64,000 nt of DNA from Hyaloperonospora brassicae. Its lineage: Eukaryota; Oomycota; Peronosporomycetes; Peronosporales; Peronosporaceae. Under the pieces are notes generated by a model that saw nothing but the letters and a program-made list of their open reading frames with translations, was not told the origin of the DNA and ran no database searches. The stretch spans positions 1 through 64,000 of the forward strand of contig CANTFL010001327.1 of NCBI GenBank assembly GCA_947650285.1, written 5' to 3'. Made by a program: the position numbers and the translations under genes. Of this stretch, positions 1,394-39,212 are shown one piece after another (position 1 is the first letter of the stretch; the number at the start of each line of letters is the position of its first letter).

Positions 1394-3180
1394 TCCCCTA
1401 TAACATCAGTTACTCTAGTGAGTGATTGGACGATTAATAACAAAGTAAGCACCGTCTGGTCGCTTTTAGGAAAGAAATTACTTGTCGTTTTTTTCTCGTT
1501 CCGACTATTTTTTTGCGCATGACGAGTTCGTCCGTGCGCGAACTAGGCCGCCACTGATGCGGATGCACGGATGCGGGAATCTGGAGAGAAAGCAATGATC
1601 ACTCCTCAGCAATTGTTAATTTGCCTTTGGCTGCTGATAAGCGGCCTGTACACACAACGTTGTACGTGCATGTGGTCATCCACGTGCAGCTTTTTCATCC
1701 GCATCTTCTGCTGCGAGTAGTAGAACCATGGACGTCGACCCAGATATAGAGGTGATATGTTGGGGCGAGACAGACCCCCCGTCTGACTTCAAGTCTCCCG
1801 CAAAGCCCGTCCGTAAAGCTGCGGGTGGTGGCACGACGACTTCTAGGCCCTCGTGGCAGTCTCGATGAGGCTCTGCGCCATAAGATATTCGGTCCATATG
1901 AAGACTCTGTAGACTCGTCGCGGGGACATATTAATTCCGCTCGCATTCATTCGATGCTAGTGAGAAACATGAGGAAGTCAGTCATCGTGATAATTCCGAT
2001 GACGCTCCACGGATTCATCGTAGCCGTATCAATTCGAGTGGTTGCGGCGATCGTATTCCATTATGTATTTTGATACTGCGCAAGAGAAGCAAGATCATCT
2101 TTACAAGATCTGCTCCTGAGATTAAACCATGTATGCCTGTAATACAATCTGAAGCAGTGGTTTAGCGTTGCCATTGGGAGCGATCGGATGCCCCCTCCCT
2201 GATTCGTCAAGAATCCATTGTCCTGATGATAATGCGATTGGTATTCGCACTAAACATGATAATTCCATCGACGTTTTTTTGAAGCATCGATGGTACCACC
2301 GCAACCGCAACCGAGACGAAGTTTAATCCGTTCAGGCGCGAAAGTTTATTGTTTTCATTGAAAATGTTGGCCGTGACCCTTGGCTGAACAAACTTATCGC
2401 AGCTCGCAATAGGTTAAGTCGATGTGGCAAACTGGTGCTCAATTTTAATGAAATCGATTATCTCGAAAGGCAGATTTACCCTGCCTCTCTTGGAAAGAAA
2501 ATTGTCAGAGTTGTTCTGGCGAACCTGTTCGAGCCCCAAAAAAGGCGCTCCTCCCTTATCAGTTCCATCGAAGGGCGCCCAACTCGTCGGAGATGTAACT
2601 AGACATTTAAACGTTTTAATTTCTTTGCGTTCGCACCGGGCGTTCGTACGACGATGGCCTTCCGTCATTAAAGGGTGCGTCTCGTCGTTATTAATGGCCC
2701 TCCATCATCAAAAGGTGCGGCTCGTCGAGCGAGACCGGGAACATCACCCATCAGATAAAAGCGGGCTTCTTAGTTGATCCACGAGCGTAGAAACTTCTGC
2801 AATTTGACGAGGTTAGTCGTCCCTGATCTGAATCGTCAATGTGGCTCAAGATACGCTCCACGAGGGAGCGTTGACAACTGCATGAGTCCACCAAAAGATG
2901 TGGAGGAGGAGTAAAAACCTCTTCCAAGTCTTTCGACTAACTATCTCGATCAACGCTAGATGTATCGCACGATAGCTGAATTGCGCGAGACTTTTGAGCA
3001 TGAGAGGGGCAGAGGCTAAGCTTTGAACGCTTCTTTGCAAAAGAACCGCAAGGATCGCAAGGCTTATCTGAGGACTGATCCTGCTGATTACGCCTTAGCA
3101 CAACTTAAAGTCGAGCGTTACTATTGTTCCCTCGTTGACAAGCTGGCGACAGCCCGCAATGTAATCTCTCAGTATCTGTT
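1394..3180 (+). pseudogene. Decayed antisense ORF region of family-A relic A'
   Basis: This matches 29712-31440 of the intact family-A element, the part holding its plus-strand (antisense) ORF. Around 2262-2350 the plus-strand reading gives D-V-F-L-K-H-R-W-Y and later F-I-E-N-V-G-R-D-x-W-L-x-K-L. These match D-V-F-L-R-H-R-W-Y and F-V-Q-N-V-...-G-R-D-G-W-L-K-K-L in the intact 491-codon ORF. Further matches lie at 1728-1785 (acidic stretch) and 2850-3010. Stops and frameshifts break the frame throughout. The similarity is clear; function is unknown. Confidence 0.65.
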
Positions 3181-3811
3181 CTAATCTTTCTTCACTACAC
3201 GACCGGGCTGAACTTCTGGAGCGCGAATGCAATAATCTGTTGACGATTCTTGATCGTGGGGGTCATCTTCATTGTCGGCCTCGTAGTGACAGTAAAGGCG
3301 GAGACGCCTCACGTAAAACGTAGGATGCTTAGGCATCCTATGTGGCCGCTTAATCGTGATTGATTTGCCTTGTCGGCGCATAACACGAACTGGGCCGATA
3401 TACTTGAACAGTAGTTTACTAATGCCCACTTTGGATACTACGTGTCTAGATAGCTGAACCGTAGATAGTAGAACTAAGTCGCCTTAATAAATGAAAAAAT
3501 ATCAGCTCTTCAATTCTTTTGAGCGCTCCGTATATGCCGGTACTCCGCGTAAGCGATGGAATTCTGGACGAATCGGACCAGTACCTGTCAAGCCAGCAGA
3601 AATTGATCTGCTAACGAGACATAATTTGCTCGGTTCGCCTTGTTGGATCTGCAGAAAGAGTCCTCTTGTAATTTTGTTGTTTAGAGAGTACGCCATCATC
3701 ATCGCTGGAATATTAGTTAAAATGCTGGAAATACCGGTATCGTCATCATCATCTGACTCAATATTAGAGTCATCGCTATTATTGATATAATCTTCTTCTT
3801 CGATGTTGACC
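3181..3811 (-). pseudogene. Integrase C-terminal fragment of family-A relic A'
   Basis: Minus-strand frames 3181-3429 and 3502-3811 match the integrase tail of the intact family-A element: the GPY/F-like run S-K-L-L-x-K-Y-I-G-P-x-R-V, then H-P-T-F-Y-V-x-R-L-R-x-Y-C, and upstream the acidic linker I-E-E-E-D-x-x-N-N-S-D-D-S-N. Polyprotein similarity stops at 3811, where a family-B LTR begins, so A' is cut by that insertion. The catalytic integrase core is not present here. It is a dead fragment. Confidence 0.75.
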
Positions 3812-4870
3812 TGTGGTGGAGTGGTGATTACAAATTCCTTATGACCCCAACTTTTCACTGGCGCCCGGACGGCTGACTAAAGAAGGAGGTACCCCGATTT
3901 CGCGCTTTGTATTGTCTTGTTCACCTTGTGTACCCGTCGGTGGATTGGGTTGCGCTCTTCTTAGTGGACTTGAGCTAAAGCTGAACTTGACCGTTTTGGG
4001 GATAAGAAGTGATCGGTTGGAAATTCTCCACCCGTGCAAACGTAGTGGCGGATAGCGTGGAGATTTTTCACTCGATCCCAAGCACACTTGGACGCTCTCC
4101 CAGCGTCGCCTGTATTCATCGGTTATTTCTTGACGCGCGAGCCTTCTGACCACTTGAGCCGTCTTGCGATCTTGAATATGAACTGTTTAATTCACTGCGT
4201 TTGATAGCAGTTGGGGAAGGGTGAGAACTGATGTTCCGCCTGGCCAACCAATCCAAACGCAAAGTTTGCAAAGAATCAGACCGCTTTCTATTATACGGGA
4301 GGTTTAAGTTAATGCCCGGGAGGAGTAAACGCGTGCCTTTCATTGTAAATTCGATTCTGTTTCATTCCAATCAACCGAATCCAAACTCTATGACAATGCC
4401 TATCTATTTGCTAGATCTCTGCTGCGTATCGCATGTATACATAATTCACCTTGTGCATCACGTGGTCCACAGTATACATCAAATAGAGGATCGCTGGATA
4501 GTGATCGTGGTTCATTGGATCGCGGTGCAGTGGATTGCGGGACAGTGGATTGAGGTATGTGATACACACCAATTATGCGTCCGCCCAATCCAGCATTACA
4601 AACCCAGGGTGGATCGTAGTCAATTGTTCGAGTTTCTTGTCGGGCATTTACCGTCGGATACCCGTCACTTTTAAGACCTAGCCTGTTTGATGATCTTGAC
4701 GATCTACTCCTCCAGATTGCTTCCGTATTCACCTATTTTCCATTGTCGTTAACGATCCAGCACTCCAGTTGATGTTTACCCCTTGAGCGATCCGGTACTT
4801 GTAATTAGGTAATCCGAGCCCTTGATCACGGATCTCGATCGTTCAATTATCGATCATCGACTATAATCCT
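3812..4870 (-). repeat. Decayed LTR of Ty3/gypsy family B, inserted in A'
   Basis: On the minus strand it carries blocks of the family-B LTR (compare 19871-21000) in the same order: the AAGATCGCAAGACGGCTC block with CAGAAGGCTCGCG, the ACGGGTACACAAGGTGA block, GTCCGGGCGCCAGTG, and the LTR end ATCACCACTCCACCACA, whose complement begins at 3812. GATC-rich remnants lie around 4480-4860. The far (5') boundary is unclear and could extend to about 5090. The plus-strand frame 4231-4674 lies within this LTR and is not a gene. Confidence 0.7.
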
Positions 4871-19870: not shown

Positions 19871-21000
19871 TGTCTAAAAAGACTATAGAAATTCTCTGTG
19901 GAGGAACTGATCGCATTCTCGTTATGTCCGAGCCAGTTAAGGGTTGGCTGCCCGATCCCACATCTGGTCAGATCGCGTCCATTGGACAGTCAGACCAAAA
20001 TGGATATCAGATCGGGCAGGTTGGGACCTGCGATGTTGTGTCAAGGTATGAGGCGGAAGGTAACGTTGGCGATCAGTCGATCTAGAAGGGAACCGCGATC
20101 AGCAAGGCAATCGCGATCAAGGAGGCGATCGAGATCGTGATTAGTGATCGAGATCGTGATCAGTGATCAGGTAGGTGATCGCGATCAAGTTGGTGTGGAG
20201 CTCACCATGTGGTTCGCGATCAGCAAGGCGATCACGATCAGGAAGCGATCGAGATCTTGATCAGTGATCAGGTATGTGATCGCGATCTGACAAGTATATC
20301 AGGTGTGGGCCACGATACTACAAGGTCGATACCGTACAGAGAGAGCGACATGGGGCAAACGATGTCCAAGACATGAAGATAGGGAAAGGGTTGTTTGGTT
20401 TTGATTGGTTAACAATAAACAGAGTTCAATTTGCTTCAAAGTACACGTGCCGACTTCTCCGTCGGGTAGATCATTGGCCACCCGACGTCAAGGAAAGATG
20501 TACACACTTTTATCATGTGATATCCCCTGATTGTTTGGCCAGAAATCAAGATATCTCAAACAACACTCCAACTGCGACTGGACGCAGGAAATCCTTTGTG
20601 GTTGAGGACCCAAGATCGCGAGACGGCTCAAGTGGTCAGAAGGCTCGCGATTCAAGGTCTATATTTGGACAAGGCGAACTGTTACAGATCAGGGTGACTC
20701 ATATCGAGCACCCCACAAGCATACAAGTGATCGCGTGACGAATTCCACGTGATCACACCAACCCCGATCGTGGTGTGAAGATTTCCACACCGTGATCGAA
20801 CCTCGACCCCATCTCAAACACGGTCAAGTTTTCCATTGACACGAGTCCACCTGGAAGAGTGCAACCCGCCCCACCAACGGGTACACAAGGTGAGGAAGAC
20901 CATCAAGAACATATAATTGGAGTACCCCCTCCGAGGACGTCCGGGCACCAGTGGAGAATTGGGATCGACTCCTCAAAAGAGAGATCACCACTCTATTACA
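19871..21000 (+). repeat. Left (5') LTR of element B
   Basis: It repeats at 38082-39212. It begins TGTC and ends ATTACA immediately before the primer-binding site. From 19881 on I count roughly 20 differences over ~1.1 kb, clustered near both ends. It contains a dense GATC array (20071-20287). Frame 20373-20738 is inside the LTR and recurs at 38585-38950; it is probably not a gene. Confidence 0.85.
20071..20287. repeat. GATC array in left LTR of element B
   Basis: There are 21 GATC tetranucleotides in 217 bp, many as GCGATCGAGATC or GTGATCAGTGATCAGG. About one would be expected. The array is itself an imperfect duplication: CGCGATCAGCAAGGC begins both halves. The same array recurs in the right LTR. 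Confidence 0.9.
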
Positions 21001-25690: not shown

Positions 25691-26600
25691 CGAGAAGCTA
25701 GCTGATCTTATCAAGAAACTATTGCCGGCGCAGATAATTTGCCCGTCCGTTTCTCCGCGGGCATCACCGATCGTGGTGACCATAAAGAAGAATGGAGAAG
25801 ATATCCGATTATGCATCATCTATAGACGAGTGAAATAGCTGACTAGATTGATGGTTTGTCCAATGCCTTTGATCAGCGACTTGCTGCAGGATATGGATAA
25901 AGCCATGTGGTACTGTTCCTTAGATATGGCAAGTGGTTTTTGGGTGGTGGAGATGACGGAGAGAGCCAGAGAATTTTTCGGCGTTTATTACATTACTAGG
26001 CGTGTTTGAATGGCTAAGGATGCCGTTTGGATTAAAGAACGCACCGCAGATTTACCAACGATTGATCGGCAATGCGTTATATGGATATTTGAATATTGAT
26101 ACACGTCCAAATACGATCAATTTGGGATCACCAGATCCTATCGACGTGTTTACCGACGGGGGACCGGATTCTGACATGAATACGTCGGTCCTTGGTCGAA
26201 GGTCATACATCAACGATATACTGATACCGGCCTCGTCGTGGGAATCTATCTATCGCAAATTGGAAGGATTGTTGAACGTGTGTAATCAATGGAATTTATC
26301 GATCAGTCTAGCTAAGAGCTTCTGGAGACGACGCAAGGTAGACTACCTGGGTCATCAAGTGTCTTTGTCTGGATTAGAAGCGAACACAAAGTATCTAGGA
26401 TCATTGGTAAACATACCATTTCCTCGCTCCTTACGATCGATGCAATCGTTTTTGGGGAGCCTCAACTATTACAGTCGATTCATCGAAGACTTTTCAGTGT
26501 TCGCCTCAGTAATGTACGAATTACGAAAAGCCGATTTCCATGAGATCCGTCGAGCGTATGACGACCCAAGGACAGTGAAGGTTGCTGGGCGAACTCGGCT
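25691..26600 (+). pseudogene. pol: Reverse transcriptase of element B, decayed
   Basis: RT motifs occur in order: K-K-N-G-E-D-I-R-L-C-I-I-Y-R-R, L-D-M-A-S-G-F-W, then after a frameshift near 25975 F-E-W-L-R-M-P-F-G-L-K-N-A-P and Y-I-N-D-I-L-I (26206-26226). The catalytic Y-I-D-D is Y-I-N-D here. The thumb follows: V-D-Y-L-G-H and S-F-L-G-S-L-N-Y-Y-S-R-F-I. The long frame 26002-26769 (255 codons) covers most of the palm and thumb. Confidence 0.85.
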
Positions 26601-26620
26601 GTGTCATGCTGCCCATAAAA

Positions 26621-26890
26621 GCAATCAGAAATTGCATCCAATCCCTGGGGATGATCTGGAATTGCATCCAATTTCTGGGGGCGATCAGGAATCACACCCA
26701 ATAGCTGAGGGTGATCAGAAATTGCATCTAATTGCTGAGGGCGATCTGGAATCGCACATCAATCGCTGAGGGCGATCAGGAATCACATCCAATCTCTAGG
26801 GGCGGTCGAGAATCACACCCAATTGCTGAGGGCGATCAGGAATCGCACCCAATTGCTGAGGGCGATCAGGAATCGCACCCAATTGCTGGG
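26621..26890 (+). repeat. 30-bp tandem repeat, ~9 copies, at the RT/RNase H joint
   Basis: About nine units of 30 bp, of the form GGCGATCAGGAATCGCACCC plus AATTGCTGAG, with neighbouring units differing at a few bases. The last three are nearly identical. They encode a decapeptide of the type G-D-Q-E-S-H-P-I-A-E. One unit (around 26740-26770) has an extra base and shifts the frame. It sits between the RT thumb and RNase H. Confidence 0.9.
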
Positions 26891-26909
26891 GGCGATCAGA
26901 ATCCGGAAG

Positions 26910-27990
26910 GCAGGAGTCGCTGGAAGAAAGCAACGATCGCGTTCACTTTCTTGAAACAGAAGATAGCGACTACACCCATTTTGAAACACTTTGACCCGGA
27001 TCGACCGCCAGTGATTAAGGTGTACGCCAGCAAGTGGGCTGTGTTGGCTGCATTGCTGCAGAAACATGAGCAGGTTAATGGACGGTCACTTTTTCAAGCC
27101 GTACGCTGAAGCCCAACGAAGTTAACTGTGGCATGGTGGAGAAGGAGGTACTAGCATTGCTGAGGATGCTAGATATATGCTAAACCATTCTGGTGTCTCG
27201 TGAGATCACCGTGCTAACGCGTTATTTAACCTTAGCCTGGTAGCTCCAATCTTCCGGTTTCAATGGGAGATTAAAACGATGAGCTGCATTGAAACAAACG
27301 GTACACTAGAGATCCGTCGATGTGAGAGGAGTGAAGATAAGATACTAGGTACTCCGGCAGCGAGTATAGCTCCTCGACAGGAAATGGATGAGAGGTTGAT
27401 CGCGATTGCGCCAAAGAAACAACAACGACAAACGATCAGTATGCCTCGACTTACGGTCGAAGAAGAAGAATACTCTGGGTGGCTAGTTTTGGTAGGTCTG
27501 CTAGAGTGAAGAAAAAGTGTGGATCATGCAGCACGATCGTATGGAGATTACTATGTTGGAAGGTTGTGGCTGCCGCGTCCAATTTTGTCCCTGATCTAAC
27601 TTTCAACGAAGCAGAGTATAGAGGACTATTTCTATATTTTTGTTGACTGATCAGACTAGGGGACGGGTAATCATATGTGGAGATTCAAATTCTGTGATCA
27701 GGCAAATGCGTGGAGAGATCATTTGCAAGACGCCAGGTCAACAACTGCTGGGGCATAAAGCGATGAGGAAACTCCGATCCTGGCCCAAATATGATTTCTA
27801 ACATGTAAAATGCGATTAGAACGCAAGCGCAGATCGATTGGCAAGTGAAGCTCTGCGGAAAGAGAAAAGTGGGATAGTGATGGATGACCAAGATCGCCAA
27901 GATCTAGCGACTTTGAATCGACTAGATGAGTTACTACTACCCCGCAAGACGAATCTGAGGGTGCGAGTAGCTGCGATTACCCGAGCTGCC
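26910..27990 (+). pseudogene. RNase H region(s) of element B, decayed
   Basis: The first segment (26930-27110) reads A-F-T-F-L-K-Q-K-I, T-P-I-L-K-H-F-D and V-I-K-V-Y-A-S-K-W-A-V, the gypsy RT-RNase H connection and start. A later segment (27560-27990) contains L-T-F-N-E-A-E-Y-R-G-L-F and, in another frame, W-R-F-K-F, like the second RNase H fold typical of this oomycete gypsy group. There are many stops. Confidence 0.65.
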
Positions 27991-29317: not shown

Positions 29318-29322
29318 CGGAT
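29318..29322. repeat. Target-site duplication CGGAT, left copy
   Basis: CGGAT precedes the family-A element and is repeated directly after it at 37303-37307. A 5-bp duplication is normal for Ty3/gypsy integration. Confidence 0.9.
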
Positions 29323-29711
29323 TGTAACGGGGCACACCCTTGCGTAACTTAACGCAAGGGATTTGGGTGCCCCGACGGACGTACACGTGGCGAGCGAGGA
29401 AGCGTAGGTAGGGTAAAAGTAGAACTGTTATATTAATAAATTAAGTCTTTAAACTACTGTCTCTTCGTTTGACTTAATTCAATTATACTAATATAACTGC
29501 ATGTATGGTGACGTCTCGTCACCACTCATTGCGCGCGTCTTGCGGCGATTGGTGGGTTGATATCATCACGATATCAACCAATGAACAGACCCTTCTGGTC
29601 GACCCTTCAATATCACCGCTTCGGTGATATTGTTTAAAGAATATCCATCTTATATTCTTTATTGTCACTTTCCTTAAGTGACAATATCATGTAACGGGCT
29701 GCCCCGTTACA
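29323..29711 (-). repeat. 3' LTR of element A
   Basis: 389 bp, TGTAACGGGG ... CCCCGTTACA, the same as 36914-37302 base for base as far as I can read. The terminal inverted repeat is 10 bp, much longer than the usual TG...CA. The end 22 bases fold back on themselves (29690-29711, 9-bp stem). Other perfect stems are 29337-29360 (9 bp), 29609-29631 (10 bp), 29636-29660 (9 bp) and 29661-29685 (10 bp). Confidence 0.95.
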
Positions 29712-30460
29712 TCACCCCCCCCTTAACTGATAGTCACCGTGTGACTATCGAAATATGGAGGCCACCCGTTGGCCACCATTGGGACAGGGAGCACTTGTTG
29801 AATCCGTTCCACTCACTTTCCGCTTGACCTCGCATAGTTAACATGTCTATGCGAGGTGACTCAAGACCCACACAGCCTGGTGCTGTGCAAGCCTCTGCGG
29901 CAGACGCTTCGTCGTCTGCCGCCCCTTCTTCGCCTGCAGCAACAGGTGCTGTAGGTGCACGCGGTATCACGCCGCGTGCGCATGATGACCTCGACGTAGA
30001 GGTCATCTACTCTGGCGAGTCAGACGTGTCTGACTCGGGCAATGCTCCAGAGGCGTCTCGCTCACCGGCGACGCCTCAGTATTCGCCAAGGCCACTGCCG
30101 AACGAACGGACTCGTGATTTGCATCACAGTCTGTTCGGCAGTGATGACGATGATCAGGGTGGTGAGGAATTCTATTCCTCACCACCGCCGGCTCGTGCGC
30201 CTTCGCACGAGCGTGATGACGATGGCGCGAGCCGTCGTCAATCTGGGAGCCGTGGTACCAACAAGGGTACCACTGTGAAGCGTGATGAGTTGAAGCCGTG
30301 GCGTTTGCCCGAACAACTCATCAATAGCCTGTCTCACGAGACAGGCCAACACCATCGAATACCCTTATTCGATGCAACCGAGCTTCACGGCTTGAGTTCC
30401 AGCGCGAAGAACTTTCGCGCTGAAGAAGAATTCTATCTCGATGTCTTTCTTAGACATCGA
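29609..30460. repeat. Serial perfect inverted repeats (hairpin string), sample tract
   Basis: Perfect stems of 8 bp or more that I could locate, as outer coordinates (stem/loop): 29609-29631 (10/3), 29636-29660 (9/7), 29661-29685 (10/5), 29690-29711 (9/4), 29729-29749 (9/3), 29827-29857 (11/9), 29897-29922 (10/6), 29957-29979 (8/7), 29984-30007 (9/6), 30016-30037 (9/4), 30050-30077 (8/12), 30093-30143 (11/29), 30159-30185 (12/3), 30191-30212 (9/4), 30252-30273 (8/6), 30283-30323 (10/21), 30327-30346 (8/4), 30353-30374 (9/4), 30401-30421 (8/5), 30438-30460 (9/5). This is 20 in 852 bp. The pattern runs on through the rest of the element. No equivalent density is seen in element B coding DNA or in the host genes. 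Confidence 0.9.
29712..29724 (-). other. Polypurine tract of element A
   Basis: On the minus strand AAGGGGGGGGTGA directly abuts the 3' LTR. This is the expected place of plus-strand DNA priming in LTR retrotransposons. Confidence 0.8.
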
Positions 30461-31318
30461 TGGTACAATAGCAACCAAAAGCGTGACAAAACATCGGTTT
30501 TGGCTGCGTGGAACGCGTTCGTCCAAAACGTCAAGAATTTTGGACGAGATGGGTGGCTCAAGAAACTTGAGGCAACACGCCTCAGGTTCGAGCGGCGAAC
30601 GCCAACCGGTGCTAGGTACCGGTTGCATTGTTTATCTATTGAGGCAGGAATTCCTTGCCTCACATGGGGAGACCCTTGTGCGAGTTGTGTTGACAACTCG
30701 CAGCGTGCACATAGGGATGTGTACTCCGTAAATTCGCCCTGGGGAAGGGCACACATCTCGGCTGAGATGCGTGACGCGATTGCAAACTTGCAATCCGTCT
30801 ACAAGCGCCTTGGGCGCGTGTTTACCGATGGGCCACAGGACTCATCGGATGGGTCTCGTCATACTGGCGGACGAGACCTTCAACATCCATCAACAGCTGA
30901 GAGCGGGGCTCCCAGCTGTTCCAAGAGGGTGGATACCCCCTCCACTGGACGAGGTAGCTCGTCCTTGATCCTGAATCGTCACGGTGATTCAAGATACGCT
31001 CCACTAGAAAGCGTTGATCACCGTGATCATCCACCAAAGGATGTGGTGGAGGAGGAAAGACCTCCTCCAGAACCCCAGGCCCACCATCTCGACCCTTACG
31101 AGATGGATCGCGCAATCGATGAATTGCGCGATGACTTGAAGCACGAGCGCGACCGACGCTACGCTTTGACCGACACCGTGCGGAAGAACCGCAAGGGTCA
31201 CGAGGCTGATCGGGCGAGGGATCGCGCCGATTATGCCACGGCGCAGCTTCAGGTCGAGCGGGATGTCCGCTCCTTTTCGGCGAGCTGGCGACAGCTCGCG
31301 GAGAGATATCTCGGTTGA
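29843..31318 (+). CDS. Antisense 491-codon ORF of element A, unknown function
   Basis: It starts ATG at 29843, 132 bp inside the 3' LTR boundary, and reads on the strand opposite to gag and pol. The N-terminal ~130 residues are low-complexity (Ser/Ala/Pro/Asp-rich). The middle (about 150-340) is ordered, with L-D-V-F-L-R-H-R-W-Y, W-N-A-F-V-Q-N-V-K and R-Y-R-L-H-C-L-S-I-E-A-G-I-P-C-L-T-W-G-D-P-C. The C-terminus (about 415-490) is charged and probably coiled-coil (D-E-L-R-D-D-L-K-H-E-R-D-R-R). Its last ~500 bp overlap the chromodomain frame on the other strand. The older copy A' preserves the D-V-F-L-x-H-R-W-Y segment at the protein level, so it is a family trait and not a chance frame. I know of no established function; an accessory or regulatory role is only a guess. 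Confidence 0.7.
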   Translation: MSMRGDSRPTQPGAVQASAADASSSAAPSSPAATGAVGARGITPRAHDDLDVEVIYSGESDVSDSGNAPEASRSPATPQYSPRPLPNERTRDLHHSLFGSDDDDQGGEEFYSSPPPARAPSHERDDDGASRRQSGSRGTNKGTTVKRDELKPWRLPEQLINSLSHETGQHHRIPLFDATELHGLSSSAKNFRAEEEFYLDVFLRHRWYNSNQKRDKTSVLAAWNAFVQNVKNFGRDGWLKKLEATRLRFERRTPTGARYRLHCLSIEAGIPCLTWGDPCASCVDNSQRAHRDVYSVNSPWGRAHISAEMRDAIANLQSVYKRLGRVFTDGPQDSSDGSRHTGGRDLQHPSTAESGAPSCSKRVDTPSTGRGSSSLILNRHGDSRYAPLESVDHRDHPPKDVVEEERPPPEPQAHHLDPYEMDRAIDELRDDLKHERDRRYALTDTVRKNRKGHEADRARDRADYATAQLQVERDVRSFSASWRQLAERYLG

Positions 31319-31373
31319 GTTCCGAGGTATCATATCTGCGCGACCAGACGGATCGTCTGGAGCGCGAACGCAA
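30822..31373 (-). CDS. Chromodomain frame at the C-terminus of element A pol
   Basis: This 183-codon minus frame has no separate promoter; it is the last part of the polyprotein, displaced by a frameshift. An Arg/Pro-rich linker leads to a clear chromodomain: F-L-V-E-R-I-L-N-H-R, Y-L-V-Q-W-R-G-Y-P-P-S-W-N-S-W-E-P, then R-Q-Y-D-E-T-H-P. In chromoviruses the chromodomain fused to integrase directs insertion toward particular chromatin. Aromatic residues of the methyl-lysine cage can be matched by W and Y here, but some positions are uncertain. It overlaps the antisense ORF. Confidence 0.75.
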   Translation of the reverse strand: MRSRSRRSVWSRRYDTSELNRDISPRAVASSPKRSGHPARPEAAPWHNRRDPSPDQPRDPCGSSARCRSKRSVGRARASSHRAIHRLRDPSRKGRDGGPGVLEEVFPPPPHPLVDDHGDQRFLVERILNHRDDSGSRTSYLVQWRGYPPSWNSWEPRSQLLMDVEGLVRQYDETHPMSPVAHR

Positions 31374-32053
31374 GAACTTGATGGATGTTCTTGAACGTGG
31401 GGGCTATCTTCATCGGAAGAAGAAGGCTCGTACTGACAGTACGACCTAAGCCTCCCCACGTAAAACGTAGGATGCGTGCGCATCCTACGTGGCAATTCGA
31501 GTGTGTATGCATTGCCCTTGCGATGCAACACTCGAAATGGCCCAATGTATTTCGGCAGTAGTTTACTACTACCGACACTAGTGACTGCATGTCCAGGTAG
31601 GTTTACCGTTGACAGTAGTACTAGGTCATTAACCTTAAATGAAAGAACATTTGCTCTTCCATTCTTGTCTGCGTTCCGTTTCTGACGGTCCACCGCATTT
31701 GCGATGGAGTCCTGAACGAAACGGACTACCGCTTCTCGAGTCAGCAGGAAGTTCTCTGCTGACTCTTTGTTTTGTCTGGCAGTGCGCTTCGTGCGCACTG
31801 CTAAGAGATTGCTCTCTTCTTCAGCGAGGTTGTCTTCTTCCTCGCTGGCACAATCGTTGGCGATGCTGAATATACCAGCATCGTCATCATCATCCGAATC
31901 AATAATAGCGTCTTCGCTATTATTGAGATGATCTTCTTCATCGATGTCGACTTGATCGACATCGGCATCATACGTGACGACGTTTGCGTCGACACGTGAT
32001 GAGCAAGAGCCAAAACGGTTTTTGCTCGAGCGAGTCCCTCCCCCCTTATCCAA
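31004..32053 (-). CDS. Integrase C-terminal frame of element A (displaced)
   Basis: A minus frame of about 350 codons, open from a TTG, continues the integrase after the main pol frame loses homology near 32040. It has a long acidic linker (D-I-D-E-E-D ... D-S-D-D-D-D-D), a helical region (R-E-A-V-V-R-F-V-Q-D-S-I-A-N-A-V), then F-K-V-N-D-L-V-L-L-S and the GPY/F-type domain L-L-P-K-Y-I-G-P-F-R-V-L ... H-P-T-F-Y-V-G-R-L. The main pol frame and this one differ by -1 at a G6 run (minus 32043-32035). This is probably a disabling indel in this copy. The last ~100 codons are out of frame with the chromodomain. Confidence 0.75.
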   Translation of the reverse strand: MDKGGGTRSSKNRFGSCSSRVDANVVTYDADVDQVDIDEEDHLNNSEDAIIDSDDDDDAGIFSIANDCASEEEDNLAEEESNLLAVRTKRTARQNKESAENFLLTREAVVRFVQDSIANAVDRQKRNADKNGRANVLSFKVNDLVLLSTVNLPGHAVTSVGSSKLLPKYIGPFRVLHRKGNAYTLELPRRMRTHPTFYVGRLRSYCQYEPSSSDEDSPHVQEHPSSSCVRAPDDPSGRADMIPRNSTEISLRELSPARRKGADIPLDLKLRRGIIGAIPRPISLVTLAVLPHGVGQSVASVALVLQVIAQFIDCAIHLVRVEMVGLGFWRRSFLLHHILWWMITVINAF

Positions 32054-35000
32054 GAGTCACACTCTAGAAGGGTGGGCACACGTGGATGGCGTAGGCCATT
32101 CACGTAAAACGGTGTGTGCTGTGTTGAAGCATGCACCGAATTATTGATGGCGAATTCCACCATGGGTAGGAATTCGCTCCAACTCGGAAACGAGTGGACA
32201 TATCCTCGAAGAATCTCTTCGAGGACACGGTTCGCACGTTCCGTCTGACCATCTGTTTCTGGATGGTCAGAATTGGACATCTTCAATCGTGTTCCGAGAG
32301 TACGGAACACGGTTTGCCAAAATTCCGCCGTGAACCGAGGGTCACGGTCGGATACGAGTTCACGGGGTAACCCGTGGAGTCTAAAGACCGTGTCTAGAAA
32401 GACACGAGCACAACCTTGAGCCTTGATTGACTCAGGGACAGCAGCAAGATGGACCATCTTGCTGAATCGGTCCACAAACACAAGAATACCATTATTCTTG
32501 TGAGCGTCTTCGGGAAACCCGAAGACGAAGTCCATTGAAACGGACTGCCAGCACTCTGTCGGAACAGGCAGAGGCTGCAATGGTGCACGGGATGAAGGAC
32601 TAGGCTTCACCCGTTGACAAACTTCGCAAGCACGGATGTACTTGCGAACAAACTGATACTGGCGGGGCCAGTAAAAGTCGCGACTTACCGTGAGGTAAGT
32701 CTTTTCTCTACCACGATGGCCGCTTGTTGGGGCATCGTGACACTCATACATGATGCGCAATCGCAAATCACGATGAGCGGGTACGACGACACGAGGCGTG
32801 TCGTCGGCAACAGCTGTATAGTACAGCAATCCGTTGCGTGTCCTATACCGATCCGATGAGGATCGGTACAAAGCCGGTAAATCCCTCATGGATTTACTGG
32901 ATGGATTCACCAGATGATCCATCAATCGCAGAAGATCCTTATCTTCCGCGTATGCCTTTCGTACGTCGTCAAGTAAACTTGACGACGGGACACTGACTGA
33001 CAGTGTCGCAACAGTGGGCTTGTCCTCACTGTTGGATTGCGCGTCCGGCTCGAAATCGGGCCGGCGCGAAAGAGCATCCGCGACGACATTGAGTCGTCCC
33101 GGTTTATACTCCACGGAGGAGTTATACTCCGCGAAGAAAGACAGCCACCTCGCCATTCTTTGCGAGAGGTGAGGGCTGTTTACGGCCGTGCGTAATGACG
33201 CATGTTCCGTGTAGACAACAAACGGTCTATCTCCCAAGAGATAGACGCGAAACTTAGCCAGTGCGTATTTCATGGCAAGGAGTTCCTTGTCATGCACTGG
33301 GTAATTACGCTCAGCTGCTTGCAGCTGACGCGATTGATAACAGATGACGCGCTCCGCGCCATCTGCATCAAACTGCATTAACGCACAGCCGATTGCGAAA
33401 TCGCTGGCGTCACAGACCACATGAAATGGTCTGTCCTGATCTGCAATCGCCAAGATCGGCGATTGCATCAAGCTTTGCTTGATACCTTCAAAGGAACGCT
33501 GGCACTCAGCGTTCCATGACCACTTGACATTTTTCTTGAGCAAGCAAGAAAGATGAACAGTCATCTCGGCGTAGTTGCGCGAGTACTTGTGCAAGTACGC
33601 CGCTAGACCAAGGAACTTCCTTAGTCCCTTGACATCGACTGGCACTGGCCAGTCGGTGATCGCCTTGATCTTTTCGGGATCAGGGCGTACGCCGTGTTTC
33701 CCCACGATGCACCCAAGGAGTGGTATTTCGCTAGCCGCGAATATACACTTCTTGAGGTTGGCGTACAACTTATGCTTGCGCATAAGTTGAAGAACCTGAC
33801 GAACGTGAGTTCGGTGGACTTCTACTTCCGTCTTTCCGTCCATATCCCGGCTATGGACGAACACATCGTCGAAGTAACTCGGTGCGAAGTCTCGCACCGG
33901 TCTCAACAGATTTGTGACACATCTGTTGAATGTTGCAGGGGCATTACTCAGCCCCTGTGGCATCACTAGCCACTCCCACAGCATCCCGCTGGGGGTACTC
34001 ACTGCTGTGAACGGGACGTCCCGTTCACGCATCAGGATCTGATAGAATCCATCCATCAGATCCATGGACGAAAAGATGGTACTCTTTGACATACCATCTA
34101 TGATTACGTCCTTCCTCGGTATCGGCGTCTGAGCCGGTACCGTTGCAGCATTCAACTTGTTGAATGCGTGCACTATCCGCCACCCTCCTGTGGCCTTTCG
34201 CACACAGAAGGTCGGAGAGCTGTGAGGGGATGTTGATTCCCTCACATGGCCCGCTGCTAAGCGATCGGCAAAGAACTTGTCGATCGCTATCACTTGTTCA
34301 CGAGGCAGTGGCCACTGCTTCATGACACAGTATTTCGAGCCCGGTTTGAGCTCGATCTCGTGTCGAGTGCCTTTGTCCTTAGGCAACTCGCAAGGTACGG
34401 ATTCAGGGAACACATCCCTGAATTCGATCAAATCCTTATACAAAGGATTTGCCTGAAGTGACTCCCAGGATTGGGACGCGTATCGCTCAATCCGAGTCTT
34501 CTCATCGAGGACACTTTCGTCCATCGATGAGCTGCTGAGAACCCGTTCGTTCTCAGCAAATACTGTTGCCGACCGAATGTCGGTCACATACTCGTCCTCT
34601 GTGACGAGTACGCAGATCTGCTTGACTTTGCCACTACGCAGATCACGCAAGAACCGTTTCGGTTCTCGCGTTGGCAACTGAGTTATCTCCGAAGTCAACT
34701 TCGGAGGCACAATCAGATCAAGCGTATAAGCGCCTACGCTTGATCCGTCATTAACCAAGACGTTCAACGTCTCGGTTTCTTCCTGGGATCTTGCTTCCAC
34801 AGGTTGCTGAGGGCCTGATCCCTCAGCAAGCAACTCTTGAGGAACTCCTTCCTCAAGTACGTGGGGACTTATTCCCTCGACGTCTTCCGACTGTGGCTGT
34901 GCAACCACAGTCAGGAACCGATCCTCTACGGTCGACTCTCCAGTCGACCTAGGATTTTCATGTTGCCCCTTGGGGGCAACAGATTTCTTTCTTCTAAGAT

Positions 35001-35736
35001 GCTGCCCGCTAGGCATGCATCCATGTCCCGGTCCACTCGACTTATTCGAGTGGTGGACCTTCGGCGCAGCCTGTACTTCTGTACAGCCGCCGGGAGCTTG
35101 CTCCACAGTGTAGTGATCAACTACACTGTGATCTTGTGCAGTCGTGCTAACGACCGTACCGCAAGTGAGGCCATCGCACTCACTCGCAGAATATCCACAC
35201 GCTTGTGGACGCTCCAAGATGTTCATCAGATGGCCATCTGATGAACAAGCAGCAGGCATCTTCACGGATCGATGCTGCCAGCTCACCCTTGGCTCGTACT
35301 GTCTGAGCCAAGGTAATCCCAGGATGAAATCAAATTTGTCATCCAGATCTAGTACGATGAAATCATCATCGTACTGCTCGCCCTCTAACGTGTAGTGTAT
35401 TCCTACTACACGTTTCTCAACGGTTATCGATGCGCCTGTTGCAAGGCGCACCGTCATCCTTGTGAGGGGAATGTCGCGCTCAACGAACTTGAGCCTACGA
35501 CCCTCTAGTGACTGGCGACGAACAAAGTTGTTCGACGCCCCACAGTCTACTAGGGCACGAAGCGACAAGTCATTTGTCGCTTCCAACTTCAAGGTGATGA
35601 GCGAAACGTCATCACCAGGTGCAGAGACACACAATGATTGTGTATCTGGAGCAACTTTCGTCAAGAGATTTGCAAATTCTCTTGAGGTTGCTGGATCAGT
35701 AGGGCGCTCCGCCCCTACTGACACCGACCATTTTTT
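31801..35736 (-). CDS. pol: Pol polyprotein of element A: protease, RT, RNase H, integrase
   Basis: This is the polyprotein that matures Gag, copies the RNA and integrates the DNA. Residues are numbered from GTG 35724. Protease: V-D-C-G-A-S at 59-64 (a D-T-G-A variant) and I-L-G-L-P-W-L near 134-140. RT: M-D-L-M-D-G-F-Y-Q near 554-561, G-L-S-N-A-P, and the active site Y-F-D-D at 617-620. RNase H: C-D-A-S at 771-774, D-K-E-L near 812; the usual T-D-H is T-E-H (Glu 840). Integrase: H996, H1003, C1033, C1036, then D1065, D1126 and E1162 (D,D-35-E). Homology is lost after about residue 1228 through a frameshift. There is no good ATG; the frame joins gag by -1 frameshifting at 35736-35730. Confidence 0.92.
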   Translation of the reverse strand, partial: KKWSVSVGAERPTDPATSREFANLLTKVAPDTQSLCVSAPGDDVSLITLKLEATNDLSLRALVDCGASNNFVRRQSLEGRRLKFVERDIPLTRMTVRLATGASITVEKRVVGIHYTLEGEQYDDDFIVLDLDDKFDFILGLPWLRQYEPRVSWQHRSVKMPAACSSDGHLMNILERPQACGYSASECDGLTCGTVVSTTAQDHSVVDHYTVEQAPGGCTEVQAAPKVHHSNKSSGPGHGCMPSGQHLRRKKSVAPKGQHENPRSTGESTVEDRFLTVVAQPQSEDVEGISPHVLEEGVPQELLAEGSGPQQPVEARSQEETETLNVLVNDGSSVGAYTLDLIVPPKLTSEITQLPTREPKRFLRDLRSGKVKQICVLVTEDEYVTDIRSATVFAENERVLSSSSMDESVLDEKTRIERYASQSWESLQANPLYKDLIEFRDVFPESVPCELPKDKGTRHEIELKPGSKYCVMKQWPLPREQVIAIDKFFADRLAAGHVRESTSPHSSPTFCVRKATGGWRIVHAFNKLNAATVPAQTPIPRKDVIIDGMSKSTIFSSMDLMDGFYQILMRERDVPFTAVSTPSGMLWEWLVMPQGLSNAPATFNRCVTNLLRPVRDFAPSYFDDVFVHSRDMDGKTEVEVHRTHVRQVLQLMRKHKLYANLKKCIFAASEIPLLGCIVGKHGVRPDPEKIKAITDWPVPVDVKGLRKFLGLAAYLHKYSRNYAEMTVHLSCLLKKNVKWSWNAECQRSFEGIKQSLMQSPILAIADQDRPFHVVCDASDFAIGCALMQFDADGAERVICYQSRQLQAAERNYPVHDKELLAMKYALAKFRVYLLGDRPFVVYTEHASLRTAVNSPHLSQRMARWLSFFAEYNSSVEYKPGRLNVVADALSRRPDFEPDAQSNSEDKPTVATLSVSVPSSSLLDDVRKAYAEDKDLLRLMDHLVNPSSKSMRDLPALYRSSSDRYRTRNGLLYYTAVADDTPRVVVPAHRDLRLRIMYECHDAPTSGHRGREKTYLTVSRDFYWPRQYQFVRKYIRACEVCQRVKPSPSSRAPLQPLPVPTECWQSVSMDFVFGFPEDAHKNNGILVFVDRFSKMVHLAAVPESIKAQGCARVFLDTVFRLHGLPRELVSDRDPRFTAEFWQTVFRTLGTRLKMSNSDHPETDGQTERANRVLEEILRGYVHSFPSWSEFLPMVEFAINNSVHASTQHTPFYVNGLRHPRVPTLLECDSWIRGEGLARAKTVLALAHHVSTQTSSRMMPMSIKSTSMKKIISIIAKTLLLIRMMMTMLVYSASPTIVPARKKTTSLKKRAIS
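35696..35736 (-). promoter_or_regulatory. -1 ribosomal frameshift signal between gag and pol
   Basis: On the minus strand the gag frame reads TCA AAA AAT. This gives the slippery heptamer A_AAA_AAT (35736-35730) in the correct phase. After an 8-nt spacer a perfect hairpin follows, stem TCAGTAGGG/CCCTACTGA with an 8-nt loop (35721-35696). A -1 slip enters the pol frame K-K-W-S-V-S-V-G, upstream of the gag TAG at 35717-35715. These are the two known components of retroviral -1 signals. It is a prediction from sequence. Confidence 0.75.
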
Positions 35737-36869
35737 GATGGCCCGTCTCGCTGTTGCGGCTTCGCAACAGCGCTGGACCCACGCCCATTGCCCTTTCTGG
35801 CGAATGGTCGTCCATTTCGCTCAGTACTGTTTGGTACTGGGCGTGGAGCACTACACTCGTATGCGTAGTGCCCTAACTTCTGACAGCGATTGCACCTCTG
35901 CAATCGCTTGTTGCTTGTAGAGCGAGGTCTCTCGCTCTCAACATAACAGAGGTCCATTGGTTCTGGACCTCCGATCTCTTGTCGTCTCGGTGGACGGTGA
36001 GAGTTTGAGCTAGCATGAGCCTGTCTCATGCTAAAGTCTTCCTGTTCCGCGGCTGATATCGCTTCTTCAAGCGTATTCAGCTCAAGGCGGAACAGGTGGC
36101 TCCTGACGGGCCCTTCTGCGAGCCCTTGCATGAACACCGTAATCAACGTGTGTTTATGAACTGGGTTTGCAGTTATACTACTCGCAAGGAGTCGTATATG
36201 TTGTGCGTAAGCGTGCACATCACGCTTACCCTTCTTGAGTTTCAGGAGCTCTGAACGAGCCCTGAACTCAGCACGTGGCGGCTCAAACGTTTGTCTGAGC
36301 CGGGACTTGAAGTCATCTAGCGACCTAAACACGTTTGGGTCGCTACTCTCGAGTCCCAGGGACCAAGTTTTGGCACGCCCTGCCAAGTGGGTCTGAGCAA
36401 ATGTGAGTTTCATTTGCTCATCTTCGACGCGACGAGCCCTTAGGGCTCTGTCGAGTTCGACAAACCATAGTAACAGGGAGTCCTCCGGGACTCCACTGTA
36501 CTTGAAGATGTCGACTTTCATCACTTCGGGACGACGCGCATGCGCCGTCCCGCCCACAGCAGCATGGAATTGCTGCTGTCTCAACAGCTCCGTCTGTTGA
36601 GCACCGAGTTCTCTCAACTGCTCGGCCTGTTGAGAGCCTTGCTGGTGAAGCAAGGCTACTTTCTCCCTCTCGAGAGCAAGTTCATTGTGAATGAACTTGG
36701 CGATAGCAGCATGTTGTTGGTCTCTGTCTAGAGACTCCAACATGGTGCTGACGACGAGTTCGCCTACGGTAGAACTCATTCGTTCTACCGCACCCCATTC
36801 GATGTCACTCAAATGGGTAAACCCTTCACGCGTGGCGTGAAAGGTGTCTTCTTCATCCAACATGTTCAT
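35715..36869 (-). CDS. gag: Gag protein of element A
   Basis: A 384-residue nucleocapsid/capsid precursor that packages element RNA. It starts at ATG 36869 (a second ATG lies two codons on), 44 nt inside the primer-binding site junction. Residues ~55-100 are Gln/Leu/Glu-rich and likely coiled-coil. Residues ~108-275 are the retrotransposon gag core, with F-K-Y-S-G-V-P-E-D-S-L-L-L-W-F and later L-L-K-L-K-K-G-K-R-D. One CCHC zinc knuckle lies at C326-x2-C329-x4-H334-x4-C339. The tail is basic. It ends TAG at 35717-35715, 13 nt after the slippery site. The frame is intact. Confidence 0.9.
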   Translation of the reverse strand: MNMLDEEDTFHATREGFTHLSDIEWGAVERMSSTVGELVVSTMLESLDRDQQHAAIAKFIHNELALEREKVALLHQQGSQQAEQLRELGAQQTELLRQQQFHAAVGGTAHARRPEVMKVDIFKYSGVPEDSLLLWFVELDRALRARRVEDEQMKLTFAQTHLAGRAKTWSLGLESSDPNVFRSLDDFKSRLRQTFEPPRAEFRARSELLKLKKGKRDVHAYAQHIRLLASSITANPVHKHTLITVFMQGLAEGPVRSHLFRLELNTLEEAISAAEQEDFSMRQAHASSNSHRPPRRQEIGGPEPMDLCYVESERPRSTSNKRLQRCNRCQKLGHYAYECSAPRPVPNSTERNGRPFARKGNGRGSSAVAKPQQRDGPSKNGRCQ

Positions 36870-36895
36870 GTTGGATGATGTGGTCCTTGGAAGGA

Positions 36896-36911
36896 CTACA
36901 AAGTGCTACCA
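36896..36911 (-). other. Primer-binding site of element A
   Basis: Two bases after the 5' LTR the minus strand reads TGGTAGCACTTTGTAG. TGGTAGC is complementary to a tRNA ending GCTACCA, as initiator Met tRNAs do. The remaining bases must be compared with the host tRNAs before naming the primer. Confidence 0.65.
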
Positions 36912-36913
36912 GG

Positions 36914-37302
36914 TGTAACGGGGCACACCCTTGCGTAACTTAACGCAAGGGATTTGGGTGCCCCGACGGACGTACACGTGGCGAGCGAGGAAGCGTAGGT
37001 AGGGTAAAAGTAGAACTGTTATATTAATAAATTAAGTCTTTAAACTACTGTCTCTTCGTTTGACTTAATTCAATTATACTAATATAACTGCATGTATGGT
37101 GACGTCTCGTCACCACTCATTGCGCGCGTCTTGCGGCGATTGGTGGGTTGATATCATCACGATATCAACCAATGAACAGACCCTTCTGGTCGACCCTTCA
37201 ATATCACCGCTTCGGTGATATTGTTTAAAGAATATCCATCTTATATTCTTTATTGTCACTTTCCTTAAGTGACAATATCATGTAACGGGCTGCCCCGTTA
37301 CA
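36914..37302 (-). repeat. 5' LTR of element A
   Basis: 389 bp, reading as identical to 29323-29711, with the same hairpins. On the minus strand it is upstream of gag and should carry the element promoter. I could not single out a TATA or initiator with confidence. Confidence 0.95.
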
Positions 37303-37307
37303 CGGAT
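37303..37307. repeat. Target-site duplication CGGAT, right copy
   Basis: Matches 29318-29322 and marks the right edge of element A. Confidence 0.9.
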
Positions 37308-38081: not shown

Positions 38082-39212
38082 TGTGGTAAATCGACTATGG
38101 AAATTCTCTGTGGAGGAACTGATCGCATTCTCGTTATATTTGAGCCAGTTAACGGTTGTCTGCCCGGTCCCACATCTGGTCAGATCGCGCCCATTGGAAA
38201 GTCAGACCAAAATGGATATCAGATCGGGCAGGTTGGGACCTGCGATGTTGTGTCAAGGTATGAGGCGGAAGGTAACGTTGGCGATCAGTCGATCTAGAAG
38301 GGAACCGCGATCAGCAAGGCAATCGCGATCAAGGAGGCGATCGAGATCGTGATTAGTGATCGAGATCGTGATCAGTGATCAGGTAGGTGATCGCGATCAA
38401 GTTGGTGTGGAGCTCACCATGTGATTCGCGATCAGCAAGGCGATCACGATCAGGAATCGATCGAGATCGTGATCAGTGATCAGGTATGTGATCGCTATCT
38501 GACAATTATATCAGGTGTGGGCCACGATACTACAAGGTCGATACCGTACAGAGAGAGCGACATGGGGCAAACGATGTCCAAGACATGAAGATAGGGAAAG
38601 GATTGTTTGGTTTTGATTGGTTAACAATAAACAGAGTTCAATTTGCTTCAAAGTACACGTGCCGACTTCTCCGTCGGGTAGATCATTGGCCACCCGACGT
38701 CAAGGAAAGATGTACACACTTTTATCATGTGATATCCCCTGATTGTTTGGCCAGAAATCAAGATATCTCAAACAACACTCCAACTGCGACTGGACGCAGG
38801 AAATCCTTTGTGGTTGAGGACCCAAGATCGCGAGACGGCTCAAGTGGTCAGAAGGCTCGCGATTCAAGGTCTATATTTGGACAAGGCGAACTGTTACAGA
38901 TCAGGGTGACTCATATCGAGCACCCCACATACATACAAGTGATCGCGTGACGAATTCCACGTGATCACACCAACCCCGATCGTGGTGTGAAGATTTCCAC
39001 ACCGTGATCGAACCTCGACCCCATCTCAAACACGGTCAAGTTTTCCATTGACACGAGTCCACCTGGAAGAGTGCAACCCGCCCCACCAACGGGTACACAA
39101 GGTGAGGAAGACCATCAAGAACATATAATTGGAGTACCCCCTCCGAGGACGTCCGGGCACCAGTGGAGAATTGGGATCGACTCCTCAAAAGAGCGATCAC
39201 CACTCCACCACA
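38082..39212 (+). repeat. Right (3') LTR of element B
   Basis: The counterpart of 19871-21000, roughly 98 percent alike by my reading, ending CCACCACA. Most differences are in the first 90 and last 15 bases and in a few GATC sites. Confidence 0.85.
38283..38493. repeat. GATC array in right LTR of element B
   Basis: The same array as in the left LTR, with 20 GATC in 211 bp. The last site of the left copy is GCTATC here. Confidence 0.9.

What the first reader, a model, noticed from the sequence alone, without database searches (positions are those of the whole stretch)
29323..37302. A whole retrotransposon made of serial short inverted repeats
Both LTRs, the antisense ORF, pol and gag of element A consist of consecutive hairpins every ~20-40 nt. 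In 29609-30460 I located 20 perfect stems of 8 bp or more. With loops of 3-12 nt a random sequence of 852 bp should give about 0.13, or about 0.4 with loops to 30. Samples elsewhere agree: 32976-32997 (GTCGTCAAG/CTTGACGAC), 33764-33787 (CAACTTATG/CATAAGTTG), 33903-33927 (CAACAGAT/ATCTGTTG), 34798-34830 (GTTGCTGAGGG/CCCTCAGCAA-type), and in gag AGCCTTGCT/AGCAAGGCT and CAAGTTCATT/AATGAACTTG near 36635 and 36700. The DNA still encodes intact gag and pol motifs, so protein and palindromic constraints are met at once. Possible meanings: genome-wide ordered RNA structure affecting packaging, stability or RNAi exposure; or a template-switching mutation process that keeps correcting quasi-palindromes. 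I know of no described element like this.
Basis: seen in the sequence. Interest (0 to 1): 0.9.

Follow-up and report, generated by a model that had tools for sequence, protein, structure and literature searches.

The report
Retrotransposon built of tiny hairpins
A young jumping gene in a genome that is probably a downy mildew's is made almost end to end of small self-pairing hairpins about 24 letters long, while still encoding its proteins, and the pattern looks selected rather than accidental, which points to an unusual, untested way of keeping its RNA folded.

Summary
Element A (29323-37302) is an intact-looking Ty3/Gypsy retrotransposon with identical 389-nt LTRs and a CGGAT target duplication. 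It has 107 perfect stems of 8 bp or more (loops 3-12) against 1.27 in dinucleotide shuffles; codon-preserving shuffles give about 1 in pol against 53 observed. All 26 of its 300-nt windows fold at least 34% better than shuffles; none of 185 other windows exceeds 30.3%. Stem density is 12-18 per kb in every part.

Helices peak at 9-10 bp and drop sharply above that. Longer stems are AT-richer and hairpin energies vary less than permuted ones. Inherited variants avoid stems whereas private decay of old copies is nearly even, and LTR stems covary. That favours selection on folding over template-switch mutation. G·U is not preferred to A·C on the sense strand and both strands fold equally well, so the constraint seems to hold for both strands. 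My inference: hairpins keep sense and antisense transcripts from annealing and from RNAi. Function is untested. No such retrotransposon was listed by ten literature searches.

The parts
29323..29711 (-). 3' LTR (sense is the minus strand), 389 nt, 7 stems of 7 bp or more
   Evidence: identical to 36914-37302; stems
36914..37302 (-). 5' LTR, 389 nt, 7 stems of 7 bp or more
29318..29322 (.). target-site duplication CGGAT, left copy
37303..37307 (.). target-site duplication CGGAT, right copy
35715..36869 (-). gag ORF, 384 aa, Retrotrans_gag and zinc knuckle, 14 stems of 8 bp or more
31801..35724 (-). pol ORF, 1307 aa: aspartic protease, RT, RNase H, integrase; 53 stems of 8 bp or more
29843..31318 (+). 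antisense ORF, 491 aa, between pol and the 3' LTR; 10 related proteins found; 20 stems of 8 bp or more
31319..31800 (.). stretch between antisense ORF and pol, 6 stems of 7 bp or more
29715..29722 (-). G run (sense) next to the 3' LTR, probable polypurine tract
   Evidence: seen in sequence; role inferred
29323..37302 (.). serial hairpins: 240 hairpin loops in the local fold, one per 33 nt (p>=0.5); 59% of bases paired at p>=0.6

Best explanation
Element A is a recently active Ty3/Gypsy retrotransposon whose whole sequence is under selection to fold locally into small hairpins (stem mostly 8-11 bp, loop mostly 3-7, about 24 nt) on both strands. SHOWN by computation: the excess, its spread over all parts, the preferred helix length, the narrow energy band, avoidance of stems by inherited variants, nearly even decay in old copies, covariation in the LTRs, and lack of sense-strand preference. 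INFERRED: the fold is selected because it keeps the genomic RNA and the antisense transcript (which would carry the antisense ORF) each locked in short local helices, so that they do not anneal into long duplexes and offer few open sites to small RNAs, while each helix stays at about one turn or less, too short for Dicer-type enzymes (recalled) and easy for ribosome and reverse transcriptase to melt.
For: Stem excess against dinucleotide and codon-preserving shuffles. Folding-energy excess 49.0% sense and 48.5% antisense against 29.3% in MS2 and 27.5% in Qbeta; 26 of 26 element windows at 34% or more, 0 of 185 others above 30.3%. Density 12-18 per kb in every part, coding or not. Helix-length peak at 9-10 bp, falling 43, 18, 6, 4, 2 for 10-14 bp; not seen in MS2, Qbeta, 23S rRNA, one shuffle and one other window stretch. 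Longer stems AT-richer (rho -0.38, n=110; 0.007 in 1114 shuffled stems); hairpin-energy sd 2.73 against 3.93 +- 0.22 in 60 permutations, also seen. In 30 copies of a 5-kb, mostly pol, piece 17 of 90 shared variants against 44 of 93 singletons fall on paired sites (Fisher 4.6e-5). On the active branch paired sites changed 54/2601 and unpaired 122/1600 in gag-pol (ratio 0.27), while changes private to one old copy are nearly even, 983/8697 against 610/4840 (ratio 0.90) in gag-pol and 237/2679 against 135/1477 (0.97) in the 3' region. LTR covariation: 18 of 111 pairs changed on both sides, shuffled 10.3 +- 2.0, 0 of 500 as high. Strand symmetry: GU 34, AC 36 inside stems; inherited one-sided changes GU 23, AC 39; sense minus antisense excess stability 0.09 +- 0.82 kcal per 200 nt, 23S rRNA -3.37 +- 0.90. 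Small RNAs along two Gypsy elements in both orientations in Phytophthora infestans (PMC3522703, passages seen).
Against: No RNA, small-RNA or structure-probing data. Antisense transcription is inferred from an ORF near the 3' end, yet hairpins run through gag. Both-sided changes are rare in gag-pol (1 pair), though coding limits them. In the LTR count one of five measures, further pair types, was not above shuffles (43 against 43.2). Singletons too are somewhat scarce on paired sites (44 of 93 against 61% of positions, p = 0.008), and the 0.90 ratio of old copies is below 1 (Fisher 0.026), so part of the effect may be a mutation-rate difference or history before death. The length-GC link is weak in the antisense-ORF and spacer part with stems of 7 bp or more (rho -0.08, n=34; -0.44 with 8 bp or more, n=26). 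The A.C lean partly reflects a G>A bias in shared variants (23 G>A, 10 C>T). The GU/AC control on E. coli rRNA was uninformative, and GU exceeded AC only mildly in MS2 (43:32) and Qbeta (73:48), so that test has modest power; Qbeta also shows no strand difference (0.03 +- 1.24), so symmetry is not special to this element. Energy narrowing is also seen with DNA parameters (ratio 0.81 against 0.74 for RNA), so single-stranded DNA is not excluded. The P. infestans paper also says that its data suggest processes other than the typical dsRNA-Dicer-Argonaute path.
Confidence: 0.5

Rival explanations
1. Mutational ratchet: during reverse transcription the nascent strand switches template within quasi-palindromes, so imperfect inverted repeats are made perfect again and again; the hairpins have no function.
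For: Strand symmetry and scarcity of G.U are what a copying process gives. LTR stems show transversion-type double changes, e.g. UA to AU and GC to UA. Old copies lose stems. A few helices changed in one arm only: 4-0, 5-0, 3-0, 4-0.
Against: Helix length has a peak and a ceiling, and stems in the LTRs are also at most 11 bp; copying alone should keep extending them. Length and GC are traded off and energies narrowed. Among helices with exactly two one-sided changes, 12 were in one arm and 10 split (my tally; one helix is in both alignments), no clear clumping. Helices with several covarying pairs are not in excess in the 3' region (3 of 54; about 3 expected by my Poisson estimate). Shared family variants that hit stems are rarely compensated (2 of 17 entries, both from one pair).
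Confidence: 0.2
2. Ordinary sense-strand ordered RNA structure, as in GORS viruses: compaction for packaging, or shielding of the genomic RNA, without any role of the antisense strand.
For: Folding-energy excess, hairpins throughout coding RNA, fewer changes at paired sites, all as described for GORS (PMC7642675, abstract and passages). Energy narrowing is slightly stronger with RNA than DNA parameters.
Against: Selection on one RNA strand should keep G.U more often than A.C; inherited one-sided changes are GU 23, AC 39, p = 2e-6 against a 2:1 GU expectation that I chose, before allowing for the G>A bias. G.U is 4.0% of pairs, 8.8-9.5% in the RNA phages. Pairings are kept between subfamilies, whereas GORS pairings are reported as poorly conserved.
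Confidence: 0.18
3. The selected molecule is single-stranded DNA: hairpins in minus-strand cDNA protect or organise it during reverse transcription, or act as cruciforms.
For: Near-symmetry between G.T and A.C is expected for DNA hairpins (recalled). G>A excess among shared variants (23 against 10 C>T) would fit lesions in minus-strand DNA.
Against: Energy narrowing is weaker with DNA parameters. I recall no described ssDNA role that needs hairpins throughout an element.
Confidence: 0.08
4. Artefact of base composition, assembly or a simple repeat.
For: None found.
Against: Dinucleotide and codon shuffles remove it; loops are nearly all different; 67 places with 98-100% pol identity are in the genome; a 92%-identical, frameshifted copy still has 73 stems against 0.9.
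Confidence: 0.01

Closest known systems
Ty3/Gypsy LTR retrotransposon with an antisense ORF between pol and 3' LTR (comparison with plant Tat-lineage elements such as Grande and RIRE2 is recalled, not tested)
   Same: LTRs, 5-bp target duplication, gag, protease-RT-RNaseH-integrase order, antisense ORF position
   Different: Hairpins fill the whole element; two other Gypsy stretches in the same window do not show this (mean energy excess 4.8% over 11 windows and 4.7% over 10)
[quoted passage not shown]
   Same: Excess folding energy throughout coding RNA, many consecutive stem-loops, fewer changes at paired sites (PMC7642675, abstract and passages)
   Different: About 48-49% here against 15% in SARS-CoV-2 and at most 23.4% quoted there for vertebrate RNA viruses (methods differ somewhat); pairings kept across subfamilies; set helix length; no sense-strand preference
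RNA phages MS2 and Qbeta
   Same: Hairpin-rich coding RNA, energy excess on both strands
   Different: Energy excess 27-29%; no 9-10 bp helix peak; more than twice the G.U share
miRNA-like secondary structures in maize transposable elements (PMC10760457, outline and abstract seen)
   Same: Local hairpins in retrotransposon transcripts discussed with small RNAs
   Different: There they are pre-miRNA-like regions that correlate with more small RNAs; here uniform short hairpins fill the element

Membership tests
Ty3/Gypsy LTR retrotransposon | two LTRs with TG...CA ends and a target-site duplication | tested here: met
   389-nt identical LTRs, CGGAT on both sides
Ty3/Gypsy LTR retrotransposon | gag and pol with protease, RT, RNase H, then integrase | tested here: met
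   Pfam matches in that order
Ty3/Gypsy LTR retrotransposon | mobile in the living host | not testable with these tools
   identical LTRs and 67 near-identical places suggest recent activity only
[quoted passage not shown]
   26 of 26 windows at 34% or more
[quoted passage not shown]
[quoted passage not shown]
   homologous stems kept, with covariation, in LTRs of divergent subfamilies; at the threshold of 4, 1107 of 1144 called pairs of A are the same in the relatives
[quoted passage not shown]
   no probing data
Products of quasi-palindrome template switching | strand symmetry of the inverted repeats | tested here: met
Products of quasi-palindrome template switching | clustered, one-arm templated changes | tested here: inconclusive
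   a few helices changed 3-0 to 5-0, but no clear overall clumping
Products of quasi-palindrome template switching | stem length unbounded and independent of stability | tested here: not met
   length ceiling and energy narrowing

The most novel reading that the evidence does not exclude
A new kind of nucleic-acid architecture: a mobile element whose entire genome, LTRs and both coding strands included, is selected as a string of about one-turn hairpins of set stability that hold on both strands, as an inherited armour against sense-antisense pairing and RNA silencing.
Probability: 0.35. Interest if true: 0.95.

Novelty: new variant of a known kind. Interest (0 to 1): 0.85.

Why it matters
If right, it shows that selection can shape every part of an 8-kb coding element into set-size hairpins while keeping the proteins, to a degree beyond the RNA viruses compared here. 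It gives a natural test bed for what genome-wide RNA structure is for, outside vertebrate immunity, and for how mobile elements live with RNA silencing when they express both strands. If the mutational rival is right instead, it would be an extreme natural case of reverse-transcription-driven palindrome perfection. Either way stems and loops, young and old copies can be compared directly in one genome.

Tried and rejected
Composition or low-complexity artefact: rejected. Stable-tetraloop signature of RNA selection: none evident among 32 tetraloops, by eye. E. coli rRNA as a control for the GU/AC test: uninformative, too few local hairpins; I then used RNA phages and a strand-energy test. Negative stem-loop length correlation: not used as evidence, because an inner mismatch alone shortens the stem and lengthens the loop. 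DNA of relatives outside this genome: none confirmed in viral contigs or genome contigs, no match in phages, 3 distant records in plasmids. Rfam: 2 matches up to E = 1, both far below the family thresholds, one of them outside the element. Searches with other gag proteins for a distinct young sister family mostly returned family A copies; the two best hits led to L045. Structure prediction of the antisense ORF product: machine busy twice, not done. Rows dropped: 2 of 213 windows straddling the element ends; in the paired-site counts, columns without a clear state in the relatives or with fewer than 4 other sequences or any other difference. Literature: ten searches, several with capped lists (20 of 35, 15 of 37, 12 of 157). 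No listed title or abstract start described such a retrotransposon; subscription papers and preprints are not held. Of the papers, I saw passages of PMC3522703, PMC7642675 and PMC3950689 and the outline with abstract of PMC10760457; the rest only as listings.
Full report
WHAT IS THERE. Element A runs from 29323 to 37302, sense on the minus strand. Its two 389-nt LTRs (29323-29711 and 36914-37302) are identical and flanked by CGGAT. Gag (36869-35715) and pol (35724-31801) carry Retrotrans_gag and zinc-knuckle matches and, in pol, aspartic protease, RT, RNase H and integrase. A 491-aa ORF on the plus strand (29843-31318) lies between pol and the 3' LTR; 10 related proteins were found among the 8000 best candidates scored, two labelled Peronospora matthiolae. 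Many of the 120 listed gag relatives (of 249) are labelled P. matthiolae, so the host is probably a downy mildew or a close oomycete; the genome itself is unnamed, 100.56 Mb in 898 contigs. The 67 places scored for a 661-aa pol piece have 98-100% identity, a lower bound for copies.

THE OBSERVATION. Perfect stems of 8 bp or more with loops 3-12 number 107 against 1.27 in dinucleotide shuffles. Per part against codon-preserving shuffles: pol 53 against 1.02, gag 14 against 0.43, antisense ORF 20 against 0.56. Mean excess folding energy is 49.0% sense and 48.5% antisense; MS2 29.3%, Qbeta 27.5%, two other 8-kb stretches of the window -1.0% and 0.3%. Every one of 26 windows inside the element (minimum 34.0%, mean 47.6%) exceeds every one of 185 outside (maximum 30.3%, mean 2.3%). 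Density of stems of 7 bp or more is 17-18 per kb in LTRs, gag, pol and antisense ORF, 15.4 in the short stretch between antisense ORF and 3' LTR, and 12.4 in the spacer before pol.

HOW PROTEIN AND PALINDROME COEXIST. In pol, 11 of 69 stems of 7 bp or more pair wobble with wobble positions, and 58 pair a wobble position with a first or second position; stems in codon-shuffled pol give 338 of 994 in the first class. Gag shows 3 of 19 and the antisense ORF, in its own frame, 6 of 26, too few to tell. In pol, stems are thus built mainly by tuning synonymous positions to fixed ones.

A SET HAIRPIN. In the local fold there is one hairpin loop per 33 nt. Uninterrupted helices of 8-14 bp number 30, 38, 43, 18, 6, 4, 2, a second peak that MS2, Qbeta, 23S rRNA, one shuffle and one other window stretch lack. 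Hairpins with stems of 8 bp or more measure 24.3 +- 2.7 nt. Longer stems are AT-richer (rho -0.38, n = 110; 0.007 in 1114 shuffled stems). By part this is clear in gag-pol, and in the antisense ORF and spacers only with stems of 8 bp or more; the LTR has 7 stems (-0.70, p = 0.08). Hairpin energy varies less than when stem bases are permuted (sd 2.73 against 3.93 +- 0.22, minimum 3.46 of 60). With stems of 7 bp or more: RNA parameters z -5.5 (sense) and -4.4 (antisense), DNA parameters -4.3 and -3.8. This looks like selection on stability within a band.

EVOLUTION. Among 30 copies of a 5-kb, mostly pol, piece, 44 of 93 singletons but only 17 of 90 shared variants hit paired sites (Fisher 4.6e-5; 61% of positions are paired). 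I take singletons as mostly post-insertion changes and shared ones as having passed through replication; singletons are themselves mildly scarce on paired sites (p = 0.008), shared ones strongly (p = 4e-16). Older relatives (L039-L044, L049-L054, relict B at window 1-3813) are 69-86% identical to A over the parts compared. In L049-L054 the pol match is broken into several frames. They hold 1 to 31 stems of 8 bp or more, where shuffles were run, 1-9 against 0.2-0.35. Changes on A's own branch fell on 54 of 2601 paired and 122 of 1600 unpaired sites in gag-pol (ratio 0.27). In the 3' region 109 of 780 paired and 143 of 515 unpaired sites differ consistently (ratio 0.50). By contrast, changes private to one old copy are nearly even: 983/8697 paired against 610/4840 unpaired in gag-pol (ratio 0.90, Fisher 0.026) and 237/2679 against 135/1477 in the 3' region (0.97). 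So stems are held while the element lives and fade afterwards. Structures were taken from A, or from copy L013, which favours pairs present in A. Covariation: in the 3' region 15 of 20 consistently changed double pairs are again Watson-Crick; slid partners give 1-6 of 8-13. In the LTRs 18 of 111 pairs changed on both sides against 10.3 +- 2.0 shuffled, 0 of 500 as high; sliding the partner by 1-3 columns gives 4-11; one measure, further pair types, is not raised (43 against 43.2). The tool warns that relatedness alone can beat such shuffles. In gag-pol only one such pair was seen, as coding constraint would predict.

WHICH STRAND. Selection on one RNA strand should keep G.U more readily than A.C. 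Single mismatches inside stems are GU 34, AC 36, other 58. Inherited one-sided changes sum to GU 23, AC 39 (shared variants 3 and 6, gag-pol 9 and 17 at the laxest threshold, 3' region 11 and 16 at that). Part of the A.C lean comes from a G>A bias in shared variants, 23 against 10 C>T. Excess stability, sense minus antisense, is 0.09 +- 0.82 kcal per 200 nt; 23S rRNA as a control gives -3.37 +- 0.90, 16S -1.55 +- 1.49, MS2 -2.37 +- 1.35, Qbeta 0.03 +- 1.24. So the fold holds on both strands, and no sense preference can be seen. The power of the GU/AC test is modest.

READING. Selection on folding of both strands explains the set length, the energy band, the avoidance of stems by inherited variants and the symmetry. 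The function is inferred. The element has an antisense ORF, so sense and antisense RNAs may coexist; in Phytophthora infestans small RNAs map along two Gypsy elements in both orientations, though that paper also suggests processes other than the typical Dicer path (PMC3522703, passages). Two prefolded strands should anneal slowly, and helices of about one turn should escape Dicer-type enzymes (recalled). The template-switch rival keeps about 0.2: it explains symmetry and transversion-type covariation, but not the length ceiling or the energy band.

NOVELTY. The closest described phenomenon is GORS; published values are 15% for SARS-CoV-2 and at most 23.4% among vertebrate RNA viruses (PMC7642675, abstract and passages), with somewhat different methods. 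The ten searches named in Tried and rejected listed no retrotransposon of this kind. I file the element as a Ty3/Gypsy retrotransposon carrying a new variant of genome-wide ordered structure.

Noticed in passing
window 1-3813: Relict relative B: partial LTR 82% identical to A's, antisense-ORF and pol-end region 69% identical; most internal stems decayed (1 stem of 8 bp or more in 1.86 kb), though several LTR hairpins survive.
   Followed up: yes
window 19875-20993 and 38087-39205: A 1119-nt direct repeat, 98.2% identical, probably the LTRs of a larger Gypsy element into which A is nested; the bins holding them are GATC-rich, and three of the eight highest folding values outside A lie in them.
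   Followed up: partly
window 29843-31449, plus strand: Antisense ORF with a conserved core and no Pfam match. In this copy the ORF stops at 31318, while the following stretch in another frame (to about 31449) resembles by eye the C-terminal end of relatives, so the copy may be disrupted there.
   Followed up: partly
L049-L054 and L039-L044 against element A: A's 3' region is more diverged from these relatives (72-75%) than gag-pol (75-86%), and the LTRs fall into two unlike types, which suggests that A's lineage exchanged its 3' end and LTRs.
   Followed up: no
L009-L038 (30 family copies): Shared variants show 23 G>A against 10 C>T on the sense strand (singletons 20 against 15), while private decay of old copies is symmetric (0.0356 against 0.0354 per base): a possible replication-stage mutation bias.
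   Followed up: partly
window 35715-35724: Gag and pol overlap by 10 nt in different frames (coordinates), so pol is probably made by frameshifting or re-initiation.
   Followed up: no
window 26591-26927: Diverged tandem-like repeat family with 30-nt spacing, between the two 1119-nt repeats.
   Followed up: no
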